DNA of 22,063 bases from a virus: IMG/VR virus record IMGVR_UViG_3300009762_000007, positions 1-22,063 of that record; one strand, given 5' to 3'. Each line of letters begins with the position of its first letter. The stretch's first letter is position 1. The position numbers were made by a program, and so were the translations under genes. The notes beneath the pieces are model-generated. The model was not told the origin of the DNA and searched no databases. It saw only the letters and a list, made by a program, of their open reading frames with translations. Positions 1,040 to 14,870 of the stretch are shown piece after piece.

Positions 1040-1666
1040 ATGACAGAGATTGAAGCGGCTAAACGGATACTAAAAGAAGGTAATTGTAGCGGCGTGGATT
1101 GTACTGATTGCCCCGCATCAATGCAAAATAGCGAAGGTGAATGCAGTAGTAAAATAGGCACCAATGAAAGTGGAAACAAAATAACGCCCAAAGGCATCGA
1201 GTGGTTTAAGCGATGGCTATCCGAGCACGAAGATCCAACACCGCAAGGCAAACCTATCGACCATTTCGAGTCTGGGCACTGGTATAAATGGGTAGGGCCT
1301 TTAGTACCGGCCAAGGCAGGAATAAGCGGAGATACCGGAGTAGCATGGACTAGCGGTAAGGCATTTTTATGTAACTTAGCCAATGGCGTCGATGCACGTT
1401 TCGTAGGACTGCCAGTCGATTGCAGCTTGTGTTATGAAAGCATCATTGAGTCATTCATCGAGGTTCCCGATCCTACGGTCCACTTCCAGTCGATGCTCGT
1501 CTTGCCCTTGCCGAGATCGATGCTCAGGTCTGTAAATTGCCGTTGCTCAATAGTCGAAGCAATAACGGACAAGATCGTAGGCAAGTCTGATGACTTCGAT
1601 CCGGCATCTGTTAAGTCAAGGTCTCAACGCCGCCTTGAAATATTATGCGGCTTAACAATCGATTAG
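1040..1666 (+). CDS. phage hypothetical protein with rearranged C-terminus
   Basis: A 208-residue protein behind a strong promoter and an AAGGAGG site. The N-terminus has a Cys cluster (C16, C21, C24 and one further Cys). The middle (GHWYKWVGP through CYESIIESFIEVP, about residues 80-152) looks like a compact domain seen in many small phage proteins of unknown function, which often end soon after the 'F-E-E-V-P' segment. Here the frame instead runs on through a 39-bp segment (1490-1528) identical to the interior of the next gene but read in another frame, then about 45 unfamiliar residues. The C-terminal quarter is therefore probably a recombination product. Confidence 0.6.
   Translation: MTEIEAAKRILKEGNCSGVDCTDCPASMQNSEGECSSKIGTNESGNKITPKGIEWFKRWLSEHEDPTPQGKPIDHFESGHWYKWVGPLVPAKAGISGDTGVAWTSGKAFLCNLANGVDARFVGLPVDCSLCYESIIESFIEVPDPTVHFQSMLVLPLPRSMLRSVNCRCSIVEAITDKIVGKSDDFDPASVKSRSQRRLEILCGLTID
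1490..1528 (+). repeat. 39-bp perfect direct repeat, copy 1
   Basis: Identical to 1897-1935. In this copy the segment is read in a different frame from copy 2, encoding MLVLPLPRSMLR within the 1040 gene. Copy 2 gives a natural Ala-rich helix (RLALAEIDAQ), so copy 2 is likely ancestral. Confidence 0.9.
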
Positions 1667-3455: not shown

Positions 3456-4211
3456 ATGTGCAACTTTTTTAGTTTTGTGGGTGATGGGTTCGGTAATTAT
3501 AAGTATTTCGATTGGGAATATCGCAAGGACCACATTGACGGTAATTGCGATAGTCATACGGCAATCCTGACAGAAAATAAAGTCCCCCCTGATATGCAGG
3601 ATCGGTGGAGCAAATACGAATACAATCCACTGACAAAACTGTTCACGGTCGACGAGCCGGTCGAGGGCCATGATCATGAATCAGCCGAGGCGTGGGTTAA
3701 CGCACTTGATTTTAAGCAGATTATTCCACAGCTGATAATCAAGCCCATAGTTAACCCATTGACCAAAATAATAAAGCCAACAAAGAACGATATCGAGTTA
3801 CTAAAGGAGTGGTCTAGCGTGTGGCCTAGCGTGAGGGATAGCGTGATGCCTAGCGTGTGGTCTAGCGTGATGTCTAGCGTGTGGTCTAGCGTGATGGATA
3901 GCGTGTGGTCTAGCGTGATGGATAGCGTGTGGGATAGCGTGATGCCTAGCGTGTGGGATAGCGTGTGGCCTAGCGTGTGGTCTAGCGTGATGGATAGCGT
4001 GTGGCCTAGCGTGAGGGATAGCGTGTGGGATAGCGTGTGGCCTAGCGTGTGGTCTTATTTTAGTACATTTTTTGATATTGACTACAAATATGATTATAGC
4101 CCATGTATTAAACTTTGGGAGCGCGGTCTCGTCCCATCATTTGACGGTACGACATGGCGATTACACTCAGGAAAGAAAGCAACGATAGTTTATGAATGGA
4201 GAAAAAAATAG
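3456..4211 (+). CDS. phage protein with 20 tandem xSVx repeats
   Basis: A 251-residue protein with an AAGGGGG ribosome binding site. Residues 1-118 (MCNFFSFVGDG, YNPLTKLFTVD, AWVNALDFKQI) and 200-251 (FFDIDYKYDYSPCIKLWERG, LVPSFDGTTWRLHSGKK) are unique-sequence domains. I recall similar uncharacterised phage and gut-bacterial proteins with this same layout. Between them, residues 120-199 are 20 four-residue units, (S/P/D)-S-V-(W/M/R). The middle SV never changes. The repeat probably forms a regular helix or solenoid with stacked Val and Trp. Function unknown; a role through repeat-mediated binding is only inference. Confidence 0.75.
   Translation: MCNFFSFVGDGFGNYKYFDWEYRKDHIDGNCDSHTAILTENKVPPDMQDRWSKYEYNPLTKLFTVDEPVEGHDHESAEAWVNALDFKQIIPQLIIKPIVNPLTKIIKPTKNDIELLKEWSSVWPSVRDSVMPSVWSSVMSSVWSSVMDSVWSSVMDSVWDSVMPSVWDSVWPSVWSSVMDSVWPSVRDSVWDSVWPSVWSYFSTFFDIDYKYDYSPCIKLWERGLVPSFDGTTWRLHSGKKATIVYEWRKK
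3813..4052 (+). repeat. 12-bp coding tandem repeat, 20 units
   Basis: Twenty in-frame 12-bp units. Codons 2 and 3 are AGC GTG in every unit. Codon 1 is always TCT, CCT or GAT, and codon 4 is always TGG, ATG or AGG. Variation is confined to a three-letter alphabet at two fixed positions, and the array ends with TCT TAT TTT. Confidence 0.95.
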
Positions 4212-4849: not shown

Positions 4850-5395
4850 ATGAACAACAGAGAAATTAACGATTTCATGAAATCCCGTATGCCAAACGTA
4901 ACGAATGCGCTAAAAACAATTAGAAGCGAATTGACATACGAGGAAGCAGAAGAAGCTAGGCAAGAATTGCTATTGACCATGTATAAATGTATTTTGAAGT
5001 ATAATCCCAACCGGCATTGTACGCTAGACCACTACATTATAGTGAGCATGGAGCAACGGGCATGGCGATTTTTGCGGGACATGCGGGGATATTCGAGGAA
5101 CAAAGAGCGAAATACCGAATCGCTATCGACCGCTCGCGACAATCGGACGCCGATGATTGACTTGCTCGCAGATGATAGCGGGGATTTTACAGACAAACTT
5201 GGAGCTAATGAGCTAGTCGAGTATGCATTAGGCCAGCTTGACAAAAGGACCGAAAGCATACTAAGGTTATGGGCGAACAATCACACCTTGCAATATATCG
5301 CAGACATTTACGGCAAGTCGGTGCATTTTATTGACAGAGAAAAAGATAGGGGGCTTAGGCAAATGAAAGGAATCATAGGGGGGAATCATGAATGA
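4850..5395 (+). CDS. sigma-70-family RNA polymerase sigma-factor-like protein
   Basis: A 181-residue protein. Residues 30-85 (EEAEEARQELLLTMYKCILKY to AWRFLRDMRGYSRN) match sigma region 2, the helices that bind core polymerase and melt the -10. Residues 128-175 (LDKRTESILRLW, then a helix-turn-helix and REKDRGLRQMK) match region 4, which reads the -35. Regions 1 and 3 are absent, as in short phage and ECF-type factors. It has its own promoter with an operator-like inverted repeat, which fits a regulated switch to later phage transcription. Confidence 0.7.
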   Translation: MNNREINDFMKSRMPNVTNALKTIRSELTYEEAEEARQELLLTMYKCILKYNPNRHCTLDHYIIVSMEQRAWRFLRDMRGYSRNKERNTESLSTARDNRTPMIDLLADDSGDFTDKLGANELVEYALGQLDKRTESILRLWANNHTLQYIADIYGKSVHFIDREKDRGLRQMKGIIGGNHE

Positions 5396-8666: not shown

Positions 8667-9602
8667 GTGAAGAAGATTGCAGAGAAACCCAGTTATGAGG
8701 ATGTGCTAGCGCTTAGAATGCTGATACGGGCATACGAGGATTTCCAGGATATGCGTAAGCGCATGGATAACCGACTAGGGCGCAAGGCGGACGGAACGGC
8801 ACAGAATGTGGCATCGAGAGCTTTTAAGTCGAGCGATGTAGAGTCGTTCGTTGGTATTTCGGACGCAAGCGCATTTCAGGAAGAGGCTATCCTTAAACAA
8901 ATGCGCCAAGTTTTGAAGCGCTTCCCGATCTACAATGATTACTTGAAAGGCGTTGACGGTGTGGGCGATATCGCGTCGGCTCACATTATTTCTAGTTTCG
9001 ATATCGTGAAGGCTTCGACAGTTTCCAAGATGTGGCAATTCGCGGGGCTCAATCCGGGAATGGTCAACGGTAAGAAGTCTATCGACAAGAAGGATTACAA
9101 GGAGGCGATGGGCCCTATCGTGGCCGAGTACGCGGCTGATCCTAAAAAGAAAAACGTCAAGTACATTGTGCTTACCGATACGCAGATTAGGGGTGACAAA
9201 TTGACACCGGGATTTCTTGCGCCATACAATGCTAATTTGCGTACCGCACTTGTCGGAGTTATGGCTGACGGATTTATTATGAGTGCATTCCGTTGGCAAG
9301 AAGTTACTGAGGTGCAGTACAATAACATGCCCGAGGATGATAGGCGTATTAAAGATGGCAAGTTCCAAGTGCTTGCGATCAAGCCTAATTCCTACGCGCA
9401 ATTCTATCACGATTACAAAAATAGACTTGCGCGTGAGGATAAATGGAAGGATGAAAGCGCGGGGCATCGTGATCGATCTGCAAAGCGGTATATGGTAAAA
9501 ATGTTTATCAAAAATTTATATGTTGCATGGAGAACGATTGAGGGGTTGCCAGTACGTGCGCCGTATCAAGAGGAGTACTTGCATCATACGCATGTAGCAT
9601 GA
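8667..9602 (+). CDS. tasA: TasA-like TIGR-associated protein (IS110 Transposase_20/Nop-like, nuclease-free)
   Basis: A 311-residue protein starting GTG, 6 nt after ACGGAGG. Residues 88-131 carry the signature of the C-terminal IS110 transposase domain: a helix-hairpin-helix (DYLKGVDGVGDIASAHIISS), then KMWQFAGLNPG. Residues 180-205 (PYNANLRTALVGVMADGFI) match the conserved 'N..LR..L' helix, and 265-301 (HRDRSAKRYMVKMFIKNLYV, then GLPVRAPY) complete it. The IS110 N-terminal RuvC (DEDD) domain is missing: only about 85 helical residues precede, and no HNH motif is visible. Published TIGR-Tas work links Tas proteins to IS110 and box C/D Nop proteins, and TasA forms lack a nuclease. Two 36-nt dual-spacer arrays follow directly. 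Predicted role: binds tigRNA and uses its two guides to bind DNA without cutting. Alternative: an IS110 remnant, which the intact frame and arrays argue against. Confidence 0.85.
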   Translation: MKKIAEKPSYEDVLALRMLIRAYEDFQDMRKRMDNRLGRKADGTAQNVASRAFKSSDVESFVGISDASAFQEEAILKQMRQVLKRFPIYNDYLKGVDGVGDIASAHIISSFDIVKASTVSKMWQFAGLNPGMVNGKKSIDKKDYKEAMGPIVAEYAADPKKKNVKYIVLTDTQIRGDKLTPGFLAPYNANLRTALVGVMADGFIMSAFRWQEVTEVQYNNMPEDDRRIKDGKFQVLAIKPNSYAQFYHDYKNRLAREDKWKDESAGHRDRSAKRYMVKMFIKNLYVAWRTIEGLPVRAPYQEEYLHHTHVA

Positions 9603-9608
9603 TATAAT
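9579..9608 (+). promoter_or_regulatory. possible promoter abutting TIGR array 1
   Basis: TTGCAT (9579-9584), 18 nt, then a perfect TATAAT (9603-9608) immediately after the tasA stop. Transcription would begin near 9615, inside the first spacer, so it would clip unit 1. A matching GATATAAGGCC precedes array 2 without a -35, so the conserved element may instead be an array leader or processing signal. Confidence 0.45.
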
Positions 9609-9680
9609 GGCCATTAAAGCAGAGTAACCCATTGGCCTTGAGCGAGCCAAAAGAAAAGAGCAACCCTAAAAGGACGAGCG
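9609..9680 (+). repeat. TIGR array 1 (2 dual-spacer units)
   Basis: Exactly 72 nt, two 36-nt units. Unit 1 (9609-9644): half-edge GGCC, spacer ATTAAAGCA, loop repeat GAGTAACCC (9622-9630), spacer ATTGGCCTT, half-edge GAGCG. Unit 2 (9645-9680): AGCC, spacer AAAAGAAAA, loop GAGCAACCC (9658-9666), spacer TAAAAGGAC, final GAGCG. The full internal edge repeat is GAGCGAGCC (9640-9648). All spacers are 9 nt. The 5' end keeps only the right half of the edge repeat and the 3' end only the left half, as expected if mature guides are cut inside edge repeats. It lies between tasA and the ParB-like gene. Confidence 0.85.
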
Positions 9681-9709
9681 TAATTTTATTTTATTAACGG
9701 AGGTACATA

Positions 9710-10390
9710 TTGAAAGTAAAGATTAGCGAATTGAAGTTTGATGATGAGCTTTTAGAGTTGCGGCCATTGGATACTCACGGAGTATCAAAGTATAGGCAGG
9801 CCATGCGCGAGGGGGCGAAGTTTCCCAAGATTGTCATTGACGATACCAATACAATTGTTGCGGGTAATCATCGAGTTACCGCTTATCGTGAAGAGTTCGG
9901 AGACAATTATATAGTCGATGCCGACAGAGTATCCTTTGACAGTCCGCGCGCGCGTATCGAATATTTCGCTAAAGACAATGCTACGCATGGGCTTCCCTTG
10001 GCGTCGATTGAGAAAAAACGCATAACCTTGAAGCTATTAGGGCTTGGAAGCAGCGCGGAGCCCATTGCTTCTATGTTCGGAGTATCCGTCAAGCGTATCG
10101 AAGAATGGGCAGGGTTTACCGTTTGCGTTATTGGTAATGTGGGCGCTCCCGGAACGGTTACTACTCGCGAATATCTTCCGCTAAAGAAAGGTTCAGAAAG
10201 CATGGCAGGCGAGGAAGTAACAAAGGCCGAGTATGAACAGCATAATGAATCCGACCTTGGATACGAGGATTATTTTCTGGCCGATTATCTGGCCTCTAGG
10301 CTTAGGCGAGGTTGGGTCAATTCAGATGATGACAGGACGGCGGAAGCGTTGCGAAATCTCAGGAAGGAGATAAACAAAATAGCGATATAA
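9710..10390 (+). CDS. ParB/Srx-fold DNA-binding protein
   Basis: A 226-residue protein starting TTG after CGGAGGT. Residues 3-90 are a ParB N-terminal (ParB/Sulfiredoxin) domain: LRPLDTHGVSKYRQAMREG, KFPKIVIDDTNTIVAGNHR with the G-N-H-R motif at 52-55 that in ParB binds CTP. Residues 113-135 (GSSAEPIASMFGVSVKRIEE) are a helix-turn-helix of the KorB/ParB kind. The C-terminal 80 residues are acidic and unfamiliar. Phage ParB-like proteins act in partition, regulation or as nucleases. No ParA lies beside it. It sits precisely between the two TIGR arrays, so it may belong to that system (regulation, or nuclease partner), which is inference. Confidence 0.75.
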   Translation: MKVKISELKFDDELLELRPLDTHGVSKYRQAMREGAKFPKIVIDDTNTIVAGNHRVTAYREEFGDNYIVDADRVSFDSPRARIEYFAKDNATHGLPLASIEKKRITLKLLGLGSSAEPIASMFGVSVKRIEEWAGFTVCVIGNVGAPGTVTTREYLPLKKGSESMAGEEVTKAEYEQHNESDLGYEDYFLADYLASRLRRGWVNSDDDRTAEALRNLRKEINKIAI

Positions 10391-10642
10391 GGCCACTCAT
10401 TATGAGGAAACCATAATAATAGAGCAAGCCGCTAGTTATGAGTAAACCGTAAACTAAAGGCGAGTCATTGAACCCGAGAAACCCAGAGTTTGGAAGCGAG
10501 TCGTAGGAAGTAAGTAAATTACGTTTGTCGAGCGGGTCAGACTTGGCGAGAAAACCATGGTGTCTGAACGAGCCAAAATAAAAGAGCAAACCAGATTATT
10601 AGAGCGAGTCACCGCAAGGAAGGGACCCGTTAAAATCGAGCG
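10391..10642 (+). repeat. TIGR array 2 (7 dual-spacer units)
   Basis: Exactly 252 nt, seven 36-nt units, starting 1 nt after the ParB-like stop. Loop repeats (consensus GAGNAAACC) begin at 10404, 10440, 10476, 10512, 10548, 10584 and 10620. Edge repeats (consensus GAGCGAGYC) begin at 10422, 10458, 10494, 10530, 10566 and 10602, with half-edges GGCC at 10391 and GAGCG at 10638. Spacer pairs: ACTCATTAT/ATAATAATA; GCTAGTTAT/GTAAACTAA; ATTGAACCC/AGAGTTTGG; GTAGGAAGT/ACGTTTGTC; AGACTTGGC/ATGGTGTCT; AAAATAAAA/AGATTATTA; ACCGCAAGG/GTTAAAATC. The loop repeats of units 4 (AAGTAAATT) and 7 (AAGGGACCC) are degenerate. No plus-strand frame stays open through it. The last edge repeat runs into the AAGGAG of the next gene. 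Confidence 0.9.
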
Positions 10643-10653
10643 AAGGAGAAAAC

Positions 10654-11106
10654 TTGAAGCATAAAATTATGATAACGTTGTGTATACTGAGCACGGGGTT
10701 AGTCCATGCGGCCCCTGCTAAGATTCTTGATGCGCTACGATGGGAAGAGTCGCACAATAAAAACCATGAAGTAAACCACAATCGAAACGGGACAAAAGAT
10801 TGCGGCCCATTTCAGCTAAACTCTCAATACCTCGATTATTTTGCATGGAAGTATAACAAGGGCAAAAAGATAAACCCATTTAATGAGCGCGAGTCTAGAC
10901 GAGTGGCTAGTGATTATCTCGATGATTTGCAGACGTTTATTTTAGGCAATCACTTAGCAGATGCTAGATTTAAGCAGTCTGAAAGGTGGTACGAAATTAT
11001 CCAGGCATGGAACTGTGGACTATCGCAGTATCTCAGGGGGTCGACAAAAACATCCAGGGCACTAGCTAGGCGAGTTTTAGAAAGGGCCGGATATGGAAGA
11101 CAGTGA
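10654..11106 (+). CDS. secreted lytic transglycosylase-like (lysozyme-fold) protein
   Basis: A 150-residue protein starting TTG, 5 nt after AAGGAG. Residues 1-20 are a signal peptide (basic KHK, hydrophobic IMITLCILSTGLVHA, cleavage near AA-PA). The mature part shows the three SLT-family motifs: the catalytic Glu-Ser at 32-33 (RWEESHN), G-x-x-Q at 51-54 (CGPFQLN), and A-W-N-C-G at 118-122. It should cleave peptidoglycan glycan strands in the periplasm, for lysis or DNA entry. Its ribosome binding site overlaps the end of TIGR array 2, so array processing and its expression may be linked. Confidence 0.7.
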   Translation: MKHKIMITLCILSTGLVHAAPAKILDALRWEESHNKNHEVNHNRNGTKDCGPFQLNSQYLDYFAWKYNKGKKINPFNERESRRVASDYLDDLQTFILGNHLADARFKQSERWYEIIQAWNCGLSQYLRGSTKTSRALARRVLERAGYGRQ

Positions 11107-11588: not shown

Positions 11589-11749
11589 ACGGGTAAAAGT
11601 ACTGAAAAAATGGTACTATATAGGTAGGGATTTATGAGTGTTTGAAAAATCTAACTCAAAAGCGCAAAGCCTCAAATTAAAGCCTAGTATCGCGGATAGC
11701 CCGTGGTCTAGGCTAATTATATTTGTCTAAATCATTCAAGGAGAATACT
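11589..11749 (+). promoter_or_regulatory. 161-nt intergenic leader of the ferritin gene
   Basis: No gene fits here. It contains inverted repeats AGTAC/GTACT (around 11598-11618), TTTGA/TCAAA (around 11641-11660) and AGCCTAG (11681-11687)/CTAGGCT (11708-11714) with a 20-nt loop. The last lies just ahead of the AT-rich AATTATATTT and the AAGGAG of ferritin. It may be an operator or a leader hairpin. No Fur-box consensus is evident. Confidence 0.4.
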
Positions 11750-12286
11750 ATGGCACTTTCAACTACAATTTACAATTTGCTAGAGGATCAATACAAGATC
11801 GAGCTGGGGAATCAGTACTTTTATACCGCTCTTGGCGCGTGGTCTAAGTATTACGGCTATGATGCGGCGGCGCATTACTTCTATTCCGAGGCTCACGGCG
11901 AAAGCAAGCACGCTAAATGGGTAAGAAAGTTTGTCGAGGATCGCGGTGAACAGTTTTCGTTTGCCCCTCCGACCTATACCGCTCCCAATATCACCGACTA
12001 TGCTAGCATGTTTACGATGTCCATGGAGCAAGAAAAGAATACCACGGCTCACGTTAACCTTATTTACGGGGCCGCGCTGCAAGAAAAGGATTACATAATT
12101 TGCAAGTGCCTCAAGCCTCTGTTCTCCATTCAGTACGAGGAAGAGAAAGAAATAACCGATATCGTGTCGAAGATCATTTCGCGTGGTGGAAACCCGAACG
12201 ATACGAACGCGGCCATTTCTGCTTTCAACGCCGATCCTGCCGCTATCCACGACTTCGAGTGCTTCTTGAATAAAAAGTATAACTAA
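11750..12286 (+). CDS. phage-encoded ferritin
   Basis: A 178-residue protein; the ATG at 11750 has AAGGAG 6 nt upstream, and an in-frame TTG at 11723 lacks one. Length and sequence match bacterial non-haem ferritin (FtnA type). The ferroxidase ligands are present: E18 (YKIELG), E51 and H54 (GESKH), E95 (MEQEKN), Q128 and E131/E132 (IQYEEEK). Ferritin oxidises Fe(II) and stores Fe(III) in a 24-subunit shell in the cytoplasm, and lowers Fenton damage. It sits between accessory genes and the structural operon. The missing Met/His haem site and lack of a DPS DNA-binding tail argue against Bfr or Dps. Confidence 0.9.
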   Translation: MALSTTIYNLLEDQYKIELGNQYFYTALGAWSKYYGYDAAAHYFYSEAHGESKHAKWVRKFVEDRGEQFSFAPPTYTAPNITDYASMFTMSMEQEKNTTAHVNLIYGAALQEKDYIICKCLKPLFSIQYEEEKEITDIVSKIISRGGNPNDTNAAISAFNADPAAIHDFECFLNKKYN

Positions 12287-12500: not shown

Positions 12501-14870
12501 ATGGCACTTTTCGATAATATGTTTACTAAAAAACGTAGTCCTGTCTCCATAAACCCGATACTAATGCCCAATAGTGCGGCAAATGTGGACGGTTTAATTA
12601 GGCGTTGGCCCAAGGCCCCTACGCGCGGAGTCGGGGAACTTCCCGATTTAGCGTTCAAAAACGCTAGGCTCGATCCAACATCCATCATTGCGAAATCAAT
12701 AGCGGCTACTGATTTTATACTTTACGATAAGCGAGAACTAAGAGTTAACCCAGATCATGCAGAGCCAATCGATACTTCTCCTATTTACGATCTTCTTGAA
12801 AGTCCCGTAAAAAGATATAAAGAAGTAGACGGTTATGCACTAATGTTTCTTACATCTATTCTTGTCGATCTTGTGGGTGAATTTTTTTGGTGGAAACTCC
12901 GTGACGATAGAGGTGTAGTGCAAGAGTTGTACCCTATGCCCGCATATTGGATAGTTACAACGCCAACAATTGGCAGTCCATTTTTCATGGCGTACCCCAT
13001 GGGAACTACTTCGGGAAATGCAATTCCAATTTCCATAGACGACATGGTTTGGTTTAAGCGCATGGACCCCGATGATCCATACGGACGCGGAAGAGGTACT
13101 TCCGAAGCAATTATAGACGAAGTGGAAACTGACCAGAAGGCCGCAAAAAGCCAAAAAAATCTATTTTTCAACGATTGCACCCCTCCCTATTTTATTACCG
13201 CCGAAGGCGCAACTCAAGATCAAGCAGATGCGATAAAGCAAAACCTAACACAAAAGCTAGGCGGATGGATGCACCGCAGAGAGCCGGGGGTTTTGACTTG
13301 GGCAAATGCAAGCATCGTACCCGTGGGCTTGAGCCCGCAAGAAGTGGACTTTGTAGAGTCTCGTAAATACCTAAGAGACGAATGCCTCCAGCATTATCAG
13401 ATACCGCCCGAGATTTATGGCGTTATTGAAAACTCAAATAGATCGACCATAGATGCGAGTTACTACCTATACCAAAAGAACGTCTTGGATGACCGCTATC
13501 GGTTTATAGAGCGTGCAATCAATACGCAATTGATCCATCAAGATTTTGACGTTAACCTCATCGGAAAGTTTAGGGAAATTGTACCCGAGGATGAAGATTT
13601 TAAGTTTCAGGTAACGCAAGCCGGTTTCGTTTCCGGTGCTCTTACTCGCGCTGTTTGGAAGAAGACAATGGGATTTGAAGTAGACGATGCGCATGATAAC
13701 GTTTACGTCCTCCCTATGAACATGGTAGAAATACCCGCCGATGCTCCGGTCGAGTCTAAGCCCCAGGCAACCGGCGAAGCAACGGCCAACACTACCGAAA
13801 AGCCATCCGATGAATTAGACGATGCCGCGCAATCCGAGCTAGAAGATACCGCTAAGGCAATAGTCGATTACATACAAAAAAAAAAGACTAATGAGTTAGA
13901 CACAGTAAAGGTTGTATTTGATGACCCGTTCAAGCAAGCCAAAGCTAAGGCAATGAAAAACCAAGCTAGGCGTGAGGCTATTTGGAAATCCTTTGATGCT
14001 CGGGCTACGTCTAAGGAAGGCGAGTTTATAGCGGCTATCAAAAAATATTCCAGTAAGCAAAAAGAGCAAGTACTATCGGCTGTCAGTGGGCTAAATATTC
14101 CAACGAAGGCTATCAAGGCAAAAAGCGAAGATGATGATGACGACGATGAAGATGATGGCAAAGATGAATATGGCGTAAATAGTGCGCTCAACACGGTGTT
14201 TACAGATAAGGCTAATAAAGCATTAAAATCTGCGCTTGCATTAGCTTGGATCGATTCTATGTCATCGGGGCGCGAACATTTCTACGATATGATGGGGATG
14301 GACTCGAAAGACCCTAAAATAGTGGGTAGCTTTGACCTGACAAATAAACTTTTCAATGCTTTTGTTGAGGAAAGTGGACTATTAAAAGCCGAGGGCATAA
14401 ATGAGACTACAAATGATAAGCTTAGAGATAAGTTAAACCAAGCAATTAGTGACGGAATTACTAATGGAGATACGATCAATACAATTAAAAATAGCATTCT
14501 CGATGTTTGCGACGGTGTTTATGACGAGATGGATTCTACCAGAGCCGAATTGATTGCAAGAACCGAAACCGCCGCAAGCGTGAACGCAGGAAGCTTCATG
14601 ACGGCCAAGGCTTCGGGAATGACGCAAAAGCAGTGGCTCAGTGTCCAAGATGACAGAACGCGAGGTAATAATCCTAAAGACGAGTTCGACCACGTAAATG
14701 CTGATGGTGAAACAGTAGATATAGATGAACCATTTACAAGTACGGGCGAAGATATGATGTATCCGCTAGACCCCAATGGATCAGCGGGGAATGTATGCCA
14801 GTGCCGATGTAGTTGCTTGTGGGGTAATGACGATATTCCGCTAGATTCTGGCGACGACGAGGAAGAATAA
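12501..14870 (+). CDS. portal protein fused to MuF-like head morphogenesis domain
   Basis: A 789-residue protein. Residues 1-420 are an HK97-type portal: SPIYDLLESPVKRY, LVGEFFWWKL, ELYPMPAYW, DMVWFKRMDPDDPYGRGRG, LGLSPQEVDFVESRKY and the YQIPPEIYG motif. Twelve copies would form the DNA channel at one capsid vertex. After a charged linker (about 430-560, with six consecutive Asp around 548-553), residues 570-775 carry a MuF/SPP1 gp7-like minor head domain: ELIARTETAASVNAG, QKQWLSVQDDRTR, FDHVNADGE, PLDPNGSAGNVCQCRC. Portal and MuF are usually separate adjacent genes; here they are one polypeptide. A large terminase normally precedes and is absent. Confidence 0.85.
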   Translation: MALFDNMFTKKRSPVSINPILMPNSAANVDGLIRRWPKAPTRGVGELPDLAFKNARLDPTSIIAKSIAATDFILYDKRELRVNPDHAEPIDTSPIYDLLESPVKRYKEVDGYALMFLTSILVDLVGEFFWWKLRDDRGVVQELYPMPAYWIVTTPTIGSPFFMAYPMGTTSGNAIPISIDDMVWFKRMDPDDPYGRGRGTSEAIIDEVETDQKAAKSQKNLFFNDCTPPYFITAEGATQDQADAIKQNLTQKLGGWMHRREPGVLTWANASIVPVGLSPQEVDFVESRKYLRDECLQHYQIPPEIYGVIENSNRSTIDASYYLYQKNVLDDRYRFIERAINTQLIHQDFDVNLIGKFREIVPEDEDFKFQVTQAGFVSGALTRAVWKKTMGFEVDDAHDNVYVLPMNMVEIPADAPVESKPQATGEATANTTEKPSDELDDAAQSELEDTAKAIVDYIQKKKTNELDTVKVVFDDPFKQAKAKAMKNQARREAIWKSFDARATSKEGEFIAAIKKYSSKQKEQVLSAVSGLNIPTKAIKAKSEDDDDDDEDDGKDEYGVNSALNTVFTDKANKALKSALALAWIDSMSSGREHFYDMMGMDSKDPKIVGSFDLTNKLFNAFVEESGLLKAEGINETTNDKLRDKLNQAISDGITNGDTINTIKNSILDVCDGVYDEMDSTRAELIARTETAASVNAGSFMTAKASGMTQKQWLSVQDDRTRGNNPKDEFDHVNADGETVDIDEPFTSTGEDMMYPLDPNGSAGNVCQCRCSCLWGNDDIPLDSGDDEEE

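What the first reader, a model, noticed from the sequence alone, without database searches (positions are those of the whole stretch)
8667..9602. Tas effector without nuclease: guide-directed binding rather than cutting
The region before the Transposase_20-like domain is only about 85 helical residues, too short for RuvC, and no HNH motif is visible. With 18 spacers maintained, a role such as guided repression of host, competitor or own genes is more likely than cleavage.
Basis: inference. Interest (0 to 1): 0.75.

Follow-up and report, generated by a model that had tools for sequence, protein, structure and literature searches.

The report
Phage TasA: RNA-guided protein, no nuclease
A phage genome fragment carries a TIGR-TasA system, a recently described RNA-guided DNA-binding protein that has no cutting domain of its own and whose only conserved gene partner is a ParB-like protein, so it probably marks or blocks chosen DNA rather than cutting it, although what it aims at remains unknown.

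Summary
ORF 8667-9602 is a Tas protein beside a genuine dual-repeat TIGR array (9 units, 18 spacers). AlphaFold2 (pLDDT 92.5) matches TasH (Z 20.0) and TasR (Z 18.6), but TasR only from residue 112 on, past its RuvC domain. Residues 9-37 and 55-83 form the Nop coiled coil; no RuvC or HNH fold is present. Solo-Nop "TasA" is a published class, and so is its operon with tasParB and interleaved arrays (Faure 2025, PMC12045711). The window is therefore a new member of a known kind.

"Binding rather than cutting" is likely for TasA alone but not shown for the system. TasParB is the only conserved neighbour (22 of 31 loci); no nuclease gene is. TasParB has a ParB/Srx fold with a GxHR motif instead of ParB's GxRR, and some ParB/Srx proteins are reported DNases, so cutting in trans stays open.

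"Own genes" as targets is not supported: 317 guide pairs from 34 contigs hit their own phage no more often than re-paired decoys. Host and competitor targets could not be tested. The window's array is the second most degenerate of the 34.

The parts
8667..9602 (+). tasA: solo-Nop TIGR-associated protein (311 aa, GTG start)
   Evidence: Profile hits TasR 9mty 1.4e-45 and TasH 21kl 3.8e-40; fold match TasH Z 20.0, TasR Z 18.6
8691..8915 (+). codons 9-83: two long helices, the Nop coiled coil, in place of any nuclease domain
   Evidence: AlphaFold2 H9-37, H55-83, pLDDT about 85-98 by block; TasR aligns only from its residue 112
9048..9230 (+). codons 128-188: strand-rich insertion in the Nop domain, present in close relatives and short or absent in others; one clade-specific conserved Asp (D177 in IRGDK)
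   Evidence: Model strands E132-140, E151-158, E163-175; alignments A2 and A5
9609..9680 (+). TIGR array 1: truncated edge GGCC, 2 units (4 spacers), truncated edge GAGCG
   Evidence: Parsed; same repeat family as relatives
9710..10390 (+). tasParB: ParB-like protein (ParB-N/Srx domain with GxHR motif, HTH, C-terminal helix)
   Evidence: Homologous to TasParB of relatives; model pLDDT 93.6; ParB fold match Z up to 12.9
10391..10642 (+). TIGR array 2: truncated edge GGCC directly after the tasParB stop, 7 units (14 spacers), truncated edge GAGCG
   Evidence: Parsed; 142 bits against a best of -143 in shuffles

Best explanation
This is a TIGR-TasA/TasParB locus of a tailed phage. Inferred mechanism: the two arrays are transcribed and cut into 36-nt tigRNAs, each held in a figure of eight by a TasA dimer through the edge and loop repeats. 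The two 8-nt spacers pair with opposite strands of a target of about 16 bp, which is unwound and bent. TasA has no active site, so it does not cut. The bound complex either blocks transcription or replication itself or serves as an RNA-chosen loading site for TasParB, a nucleotide-gated DNA-binding partner, and so silences or excludes non-self DNA. Shown here: the family, the absence of a nuclease fold, the array, the conserved partner, and no excess of self-targets. Inferred by homology: tigRNA processing, DNA binding and bending. Conjecture: the role of TasParB and the identity of the targets.
For: Sequence and fold match to TasR and TasH. The TasR match starts at residue 112, past its RuvC domain; its active site is D11. 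Residues 9-83 are two helices. A 36-nt dual-repeat array lies beside tasA in nearly all relatives with one consensus, edge GAGCGAGCCA and loop GAGNAAACCA. The box C/box D pair (edge position 8 with position 3 of the next edge) is a standard pair in 315 of 317 units, and, read by eye from the units listed, in all 9 of the window. TasParB is the only conserved neighbour, in 22 of 31 loci, usually touching tasA. Self-target matches equal decoys. FpTasA was shown to bind 36-nt tigRNA.
Against: No DNA-binding result for any TasA is known to me; the paper reports only RNA binding for TasA. No natural target was found. The window's array is degenerate: mean repeat identity 0.82, second lowest of 34 loci. 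TasParB lacks the GxRR motif and glutamate of CTP-hydrolysing ParB, so a classical CTP-clamp role is uncertain.
Confidence: 0.6

Rival explanations
1. TasA aims and TasParB cuts: the ParB/Srx-fold partner is a nuclease recruited in trans to the bent, partly single-stranded target.
For: TasParB is the only conserved neighbour. Its GxHR motif resembles sulfiredoxin GCHR and DGQHR more than ParB GxRR. DNase or nicking activity is reported for several ParB/Srx proteins: Osa, plant sulfiredoxin, Bce_0392.
Against: The overall architecture (ParB-N, HTH, C-terminal helix) and the best fold matches are partition or repressor ParBs. Reported ParB/Srx nuclease activity is mostly sequence-nonspecific. 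9 of the 31 loci showed no recognisable TasParB within 4 kb, some of them on short contigs.
Confidence: 0.15
2. RNA-guided DNA bending aid: TasA bends DNA at chosen sites to help integration, partition or packaging of the phage.
For: Proposed by the discoverers from the 180-degree bend and the ParB link. Some TIGR loci sit near head or packaging genes (window portal at 12501).
Against: No excess of guide matches in the phages' own contigs. Many different guides per locus are not expected for one att or pac site.
Confidence: 0.12
3. Guided repression of the phage's own genes.
Against: 317 guide pairs against their own 34 contigs: with both spacer 3' ends at the centre, 0, 2 and 39 matches at 0, 1 and 2 mismatches, against 0.2, 1.5 and 43.5 for re-paired decoys. 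The window alone has none within 2 mismatches. Some contigs are fragments.
Confidence: 0.05
4. A decaying locus: the array has lost selection and the system is no longer functional.
For: Repeat identity 0.82 against about 0.94 typical; unit 2.4 has loop AAGTAAATT without the box C cytosines.
Against: tasA and tasParB are intact with confident folds, and all 9 edge box C/D pairs are still pairable, including one U-A.
Confidence: 0.08

Closest known systems
TIGR-TasA with tasParB (Faure et al. 2025, PMC12045711, fig. S14 and methods)
   Same: Solo-Nop TasA, parB-like gene in the same operon, dual-repeat arrays between and beside the two genes, 10-nt edge and loop repeats
   Different: The window's array is more degenerate than most; its TasA has an extra insert (residues about 205-238) not seen in the 14 aligned close relatives; order is tasA, array 1, tasParB, array 2
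TasR (9mty)
   Same: Nop domain and coiled coil; Z 18.6 over 190 residues; RNA-guided, dual-spacer
   Different: TasR has an N-terminal RuvC of about 110 residues that is absent here
TasH (9w04, 21kl)
   Same: Best fold match, Z 20.0 over 222 residues
   Different: HNH nuclease domain absent here
IS621 / IS110 recombinases
   Same: Related Nop-like RNA-binding region, Z 14.7; Transposase_20 similarity
   Different: No catalytic DEDD domain, no bridge RNA, array of many guides instead
ParB/KorB/VirB CTP-dependent clamps (for the partner)
   Same: ParB-N plus HTH fold, Z up to 12.9
   Different: GxHR instead of GxRR and no catalytic glutamate; no ParA or parS seen

Membership tests
TIGR-Tas, subtype TasA | Nop domain homologous to TasR and TasH | tested here: met
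   hmmsearch 1.4e-45 and 3.8e-40; Z 18.6 and 20.0
TIGR-Tas, subtype TasA | No nuclease domain | tested here: met
   Residues 1-85 are two helices; match to TasR starts after its RuvC; no Pfam nuclease
TIGR-Tas, subtype TasA | Adjacent array of two alternating 8-12-nt repeats with about 9-nt spacers, truncated edge repeats at both ends | tested here: met
   9 units of 36 nt, 10-nt repeats and 8-nt spacers, ends GGCC and GAGCG
TIGR-Tas, subtype TasA | Intrinsic terminator after the array (described as typical, not essential) | tested here: not met
   None found after either array; each runs straight into the next gene's ribosome site
TIGR-Tas, subtype TasA | 36-nt tigRNA bound to the protein | not testable with these tools
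   Needs pull-down and small-RNA sequencing
TIGR-Tas, subtype TasA | tigRNA-guided binding to both strands of target DNA | not testable with these tools
   Needs a binding assay; no natural target found
TasA-TasParB operon | parB-like gene in operon with tasA and arrays around it | tested here: met
   tasParB 108 nt after tasA, homologous in 22 loci
TasR | N-terminal RuvC domain | tested here: not met
   frame open only 317 codons
TasH | HNH nuclease domain | tested here: not met
IS110 recombinase | N-terminal DEDD catalytic domain | tested here: not met
   IS621 aligns only from residue 122-124 on
ParB CTPase clamp (for TasParB) | ParB-N fold plus HTH | tested here: met
ParB CTPase clamp (for TasParB) | GxRR motif with catalytic glutamate (GERR) | tested here: not met
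   GxHR in 21 of 22 and GFTR in 1; motif description
ParB CTPase clamp (for TasParB) | CTP-dependent clamp loading on DNA | not testable with these tools
   Needs biochemistry

The most novel reading that the evidence does not exclude
TasA with its tigRNAs is a programmable loading site for TasParB: an RNA-chosen 'parS' at which a GxHR ParB/Srx protein loads and spreads or nicks, which would be RNA-guided silencing or partition of DNA by a ParB-type clamp.
Probability: 0.25. Interest if true: 0.8.

Novelty: new member of a known kind. Interest (0 to 1): 0.4.

Why it matters
TasA is described as the commonest TIGR effector and its function is an open question in the field. This locus adds a clean nuclease-free example, shows across 31 loci that the one conserved partner is TasParB and not a nuclease, and gives the first test I know of in which self-targeting is not detectable for TasA guides (317 guide pairs). 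That points the question at foreign DNA and at TasParB, both of which can be tested at the bench.

Tried and rejected
Hidden nuclease in residues 1-85: rejected by the model and by where TasR aligns. Hidden nuclease in the strand-rich insert: no conserved cluster of acidic or histidine residues, only D177; the insert alone was not folded. Nuclease gene conserved nearby: none among neighbours of 31 loci; terminase appears in 5 as an ordinary packaging gene (identification by eye from the sequence). Self-targets: none beyond decoys. Targets in related phages: 4 exact matches against about 3 expected. Covariation of edge box C with the next edge's box D: pairing is kept in 315 of 317, but shuffles do as well (p about 0.26), so it is no proof. 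Rfam was not searched. Scanning IMG/VR for 16-nt targets was not done because chance matches would swamp it. A protein match of TasParB in named phages: none; TasA only in Microcystis phage Mvi-JY20. IMG/VR scans counted 172 relatives of TasA, of which 80 were kept. Nop5 matches the model at Z 7.8 only, near background for helical models.

Full report
What is there. The window is an entire IMG/VR virus record of 22,063 bases with portal, protease and capsid genes of a tailed phage. ORF 8667-9602 encodes 311 residues. phmmer against the PDB finds TasR 9mty (3e-8) and TasH 21kl (1e-6); a profile of 50 relatives finds them at 1.4e-45 and 3.8e-40, with IS110-type recombinases far behind.

No nuclease domain. 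AlphaFold2 on a 50-sequence alignment gives pLDDT 92.5. Residues 9-37 and 55-83 are two long helices. VIA-align matches TasH at Z 20.0 (222 residues), TasR at 18.6 (190 residues, model 14-297 to chain 112-302), IS621 at 14.7 and Nop5 at 7.8. The TasR match begins past the RuvC domain, whose catalytic residue is D11. The frame is open for 317 codons only, so nothing is hidden upstream. Pfam finds no RuvC or HNH in 50 relatives or in 10 longer, more distant Tas proteins; whether Pfam would detect the RuvC of TasR was not checked, so the structure is the stronger argument. The published TasR active site has four conserved acidic residues; the window protein's family-wide conserved residues are those of the Nop domain, and the only clade-specific acidic one in the insert is D177.

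The array. Two blocks flank tasParB: 9609-9680 with 2 units and 10391-10642 with 7 units, 36 nt each, alternating edge (GAGCGAGYCA) and loop (GAGNAAACCA) repeats of 10 nt with 8-nt spacers, and truncated edges at both ends. With matrices from relatives only, the 7-unit chain scores 142 bits; the best of 100 shuffled windows is -143. In the window all nine edge pairs (position 8 with position 3 of the next edge) can pair, and so do 315 of 317 units overall, but re-paired controls do nearly as well, so this is consistency and not proof. Repeat identity in the window is 0.82, second lowest of 34 loci.

Relatives. Scans gave 80 IMG/VR loci (172 in all), three genome contigs and one named phage. 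Period-36 arrays accompany nearly all of them. Among 31 loci of the nearer clade the only gene family recurring beside tasA is TasParB, in 22, mostly touching tasA. No nuclease family recurs. This is the operon described by Faure and colleagues, with arrays upstream, downstream and between the genes.

TasParB. The model (pLDDT 93.6) matches ParB N-domains plus HTH. The GxRR motif of CTP-binding ParB is GxHR here in 21 of 22 sequences, and no glutamate stands at the x position (that this glutamate is catalytic in ParB, GERR, is from my own knowledge and the mutant titles). The motif is nearer to sulfiredoxin and DGQHR proteins, and several ParB/Srx proteins are reported as nonspecific DNases or NTPases. 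So the partner may be a clamp, a nucleotide switch or, less likely, a nuclease in trans.

Targets. The paper gives 8-nt 3' overhangs, which by my own derivation fits only the geometry in which both spacers' 3' ends meet at the centre; its two wordings of the cut position disagree, so both geometries were scanned with gaps of 0-2. The window contains no match of two or fewer mismatches. For 317 guide pairs on their own contigs, matches at 0, 1 and 2 mismatches were 0, 2 and 39 against 0.2, 1.5 and 43.5 for decoys in that geometry, and 0, 3 and 56 against 0, 2.5 and 44 in the other. Exact matches in 1.6 Mb of held loci: 4 against about 3 expected. Several contigs are fragments and hosts are unknown, so host and competitor targets remain open.

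Verdict. That class is already named TasA, and non-cleaving interference is its discoverers' own suggestion. The finding is a new member of a known kind. New here are the survey showing TasParB as the sole conserved partner, its GxHR signature, and the negative self-target test.

Noticed in passing
window 3761-4096 in ORF 3456-4211: Some 20 or more tandem 12-nt repeats encoding a tetrapeptide repeat of the kind [DPS]SV[WM]; no Pfam match.
   Followed up: no
window 11723-12286: Ferritin-like protein (Pfam Ferritin 7.6e-15) encoded next to the phage head genes.
   Followed up: no
window 4850-5395: Small sigma-70-like factor (PHROG RNA polymerase sigma factor 9.9e-12) in the phage.
   Followed up: no
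window 9676-9710 and 10638-10654: Both TIGR arrays end shortly before the ribosome site of the next gene, so tigRNA processing would free new 5' ends for tasParB and the transglycosylase-like gene.
   Followed up: no
window 1490-1528 and 1897-1935: A perfect 39-nt direct repeat, 407 nt apart.
   Followed up: no
window 9604-9612 and 10386-10394: Both arrays begin with a similar TATAA(T)GGCC block, a possible -10 element fused to the truncated edge repeat.
   Followed up: partly
L003 3171-3405, 4773-5409 and 6668-6864; also the contigs of L021 and L027: Several relatives carry further TIGR arrays some kilobases from tasA.
   Followed up: partly
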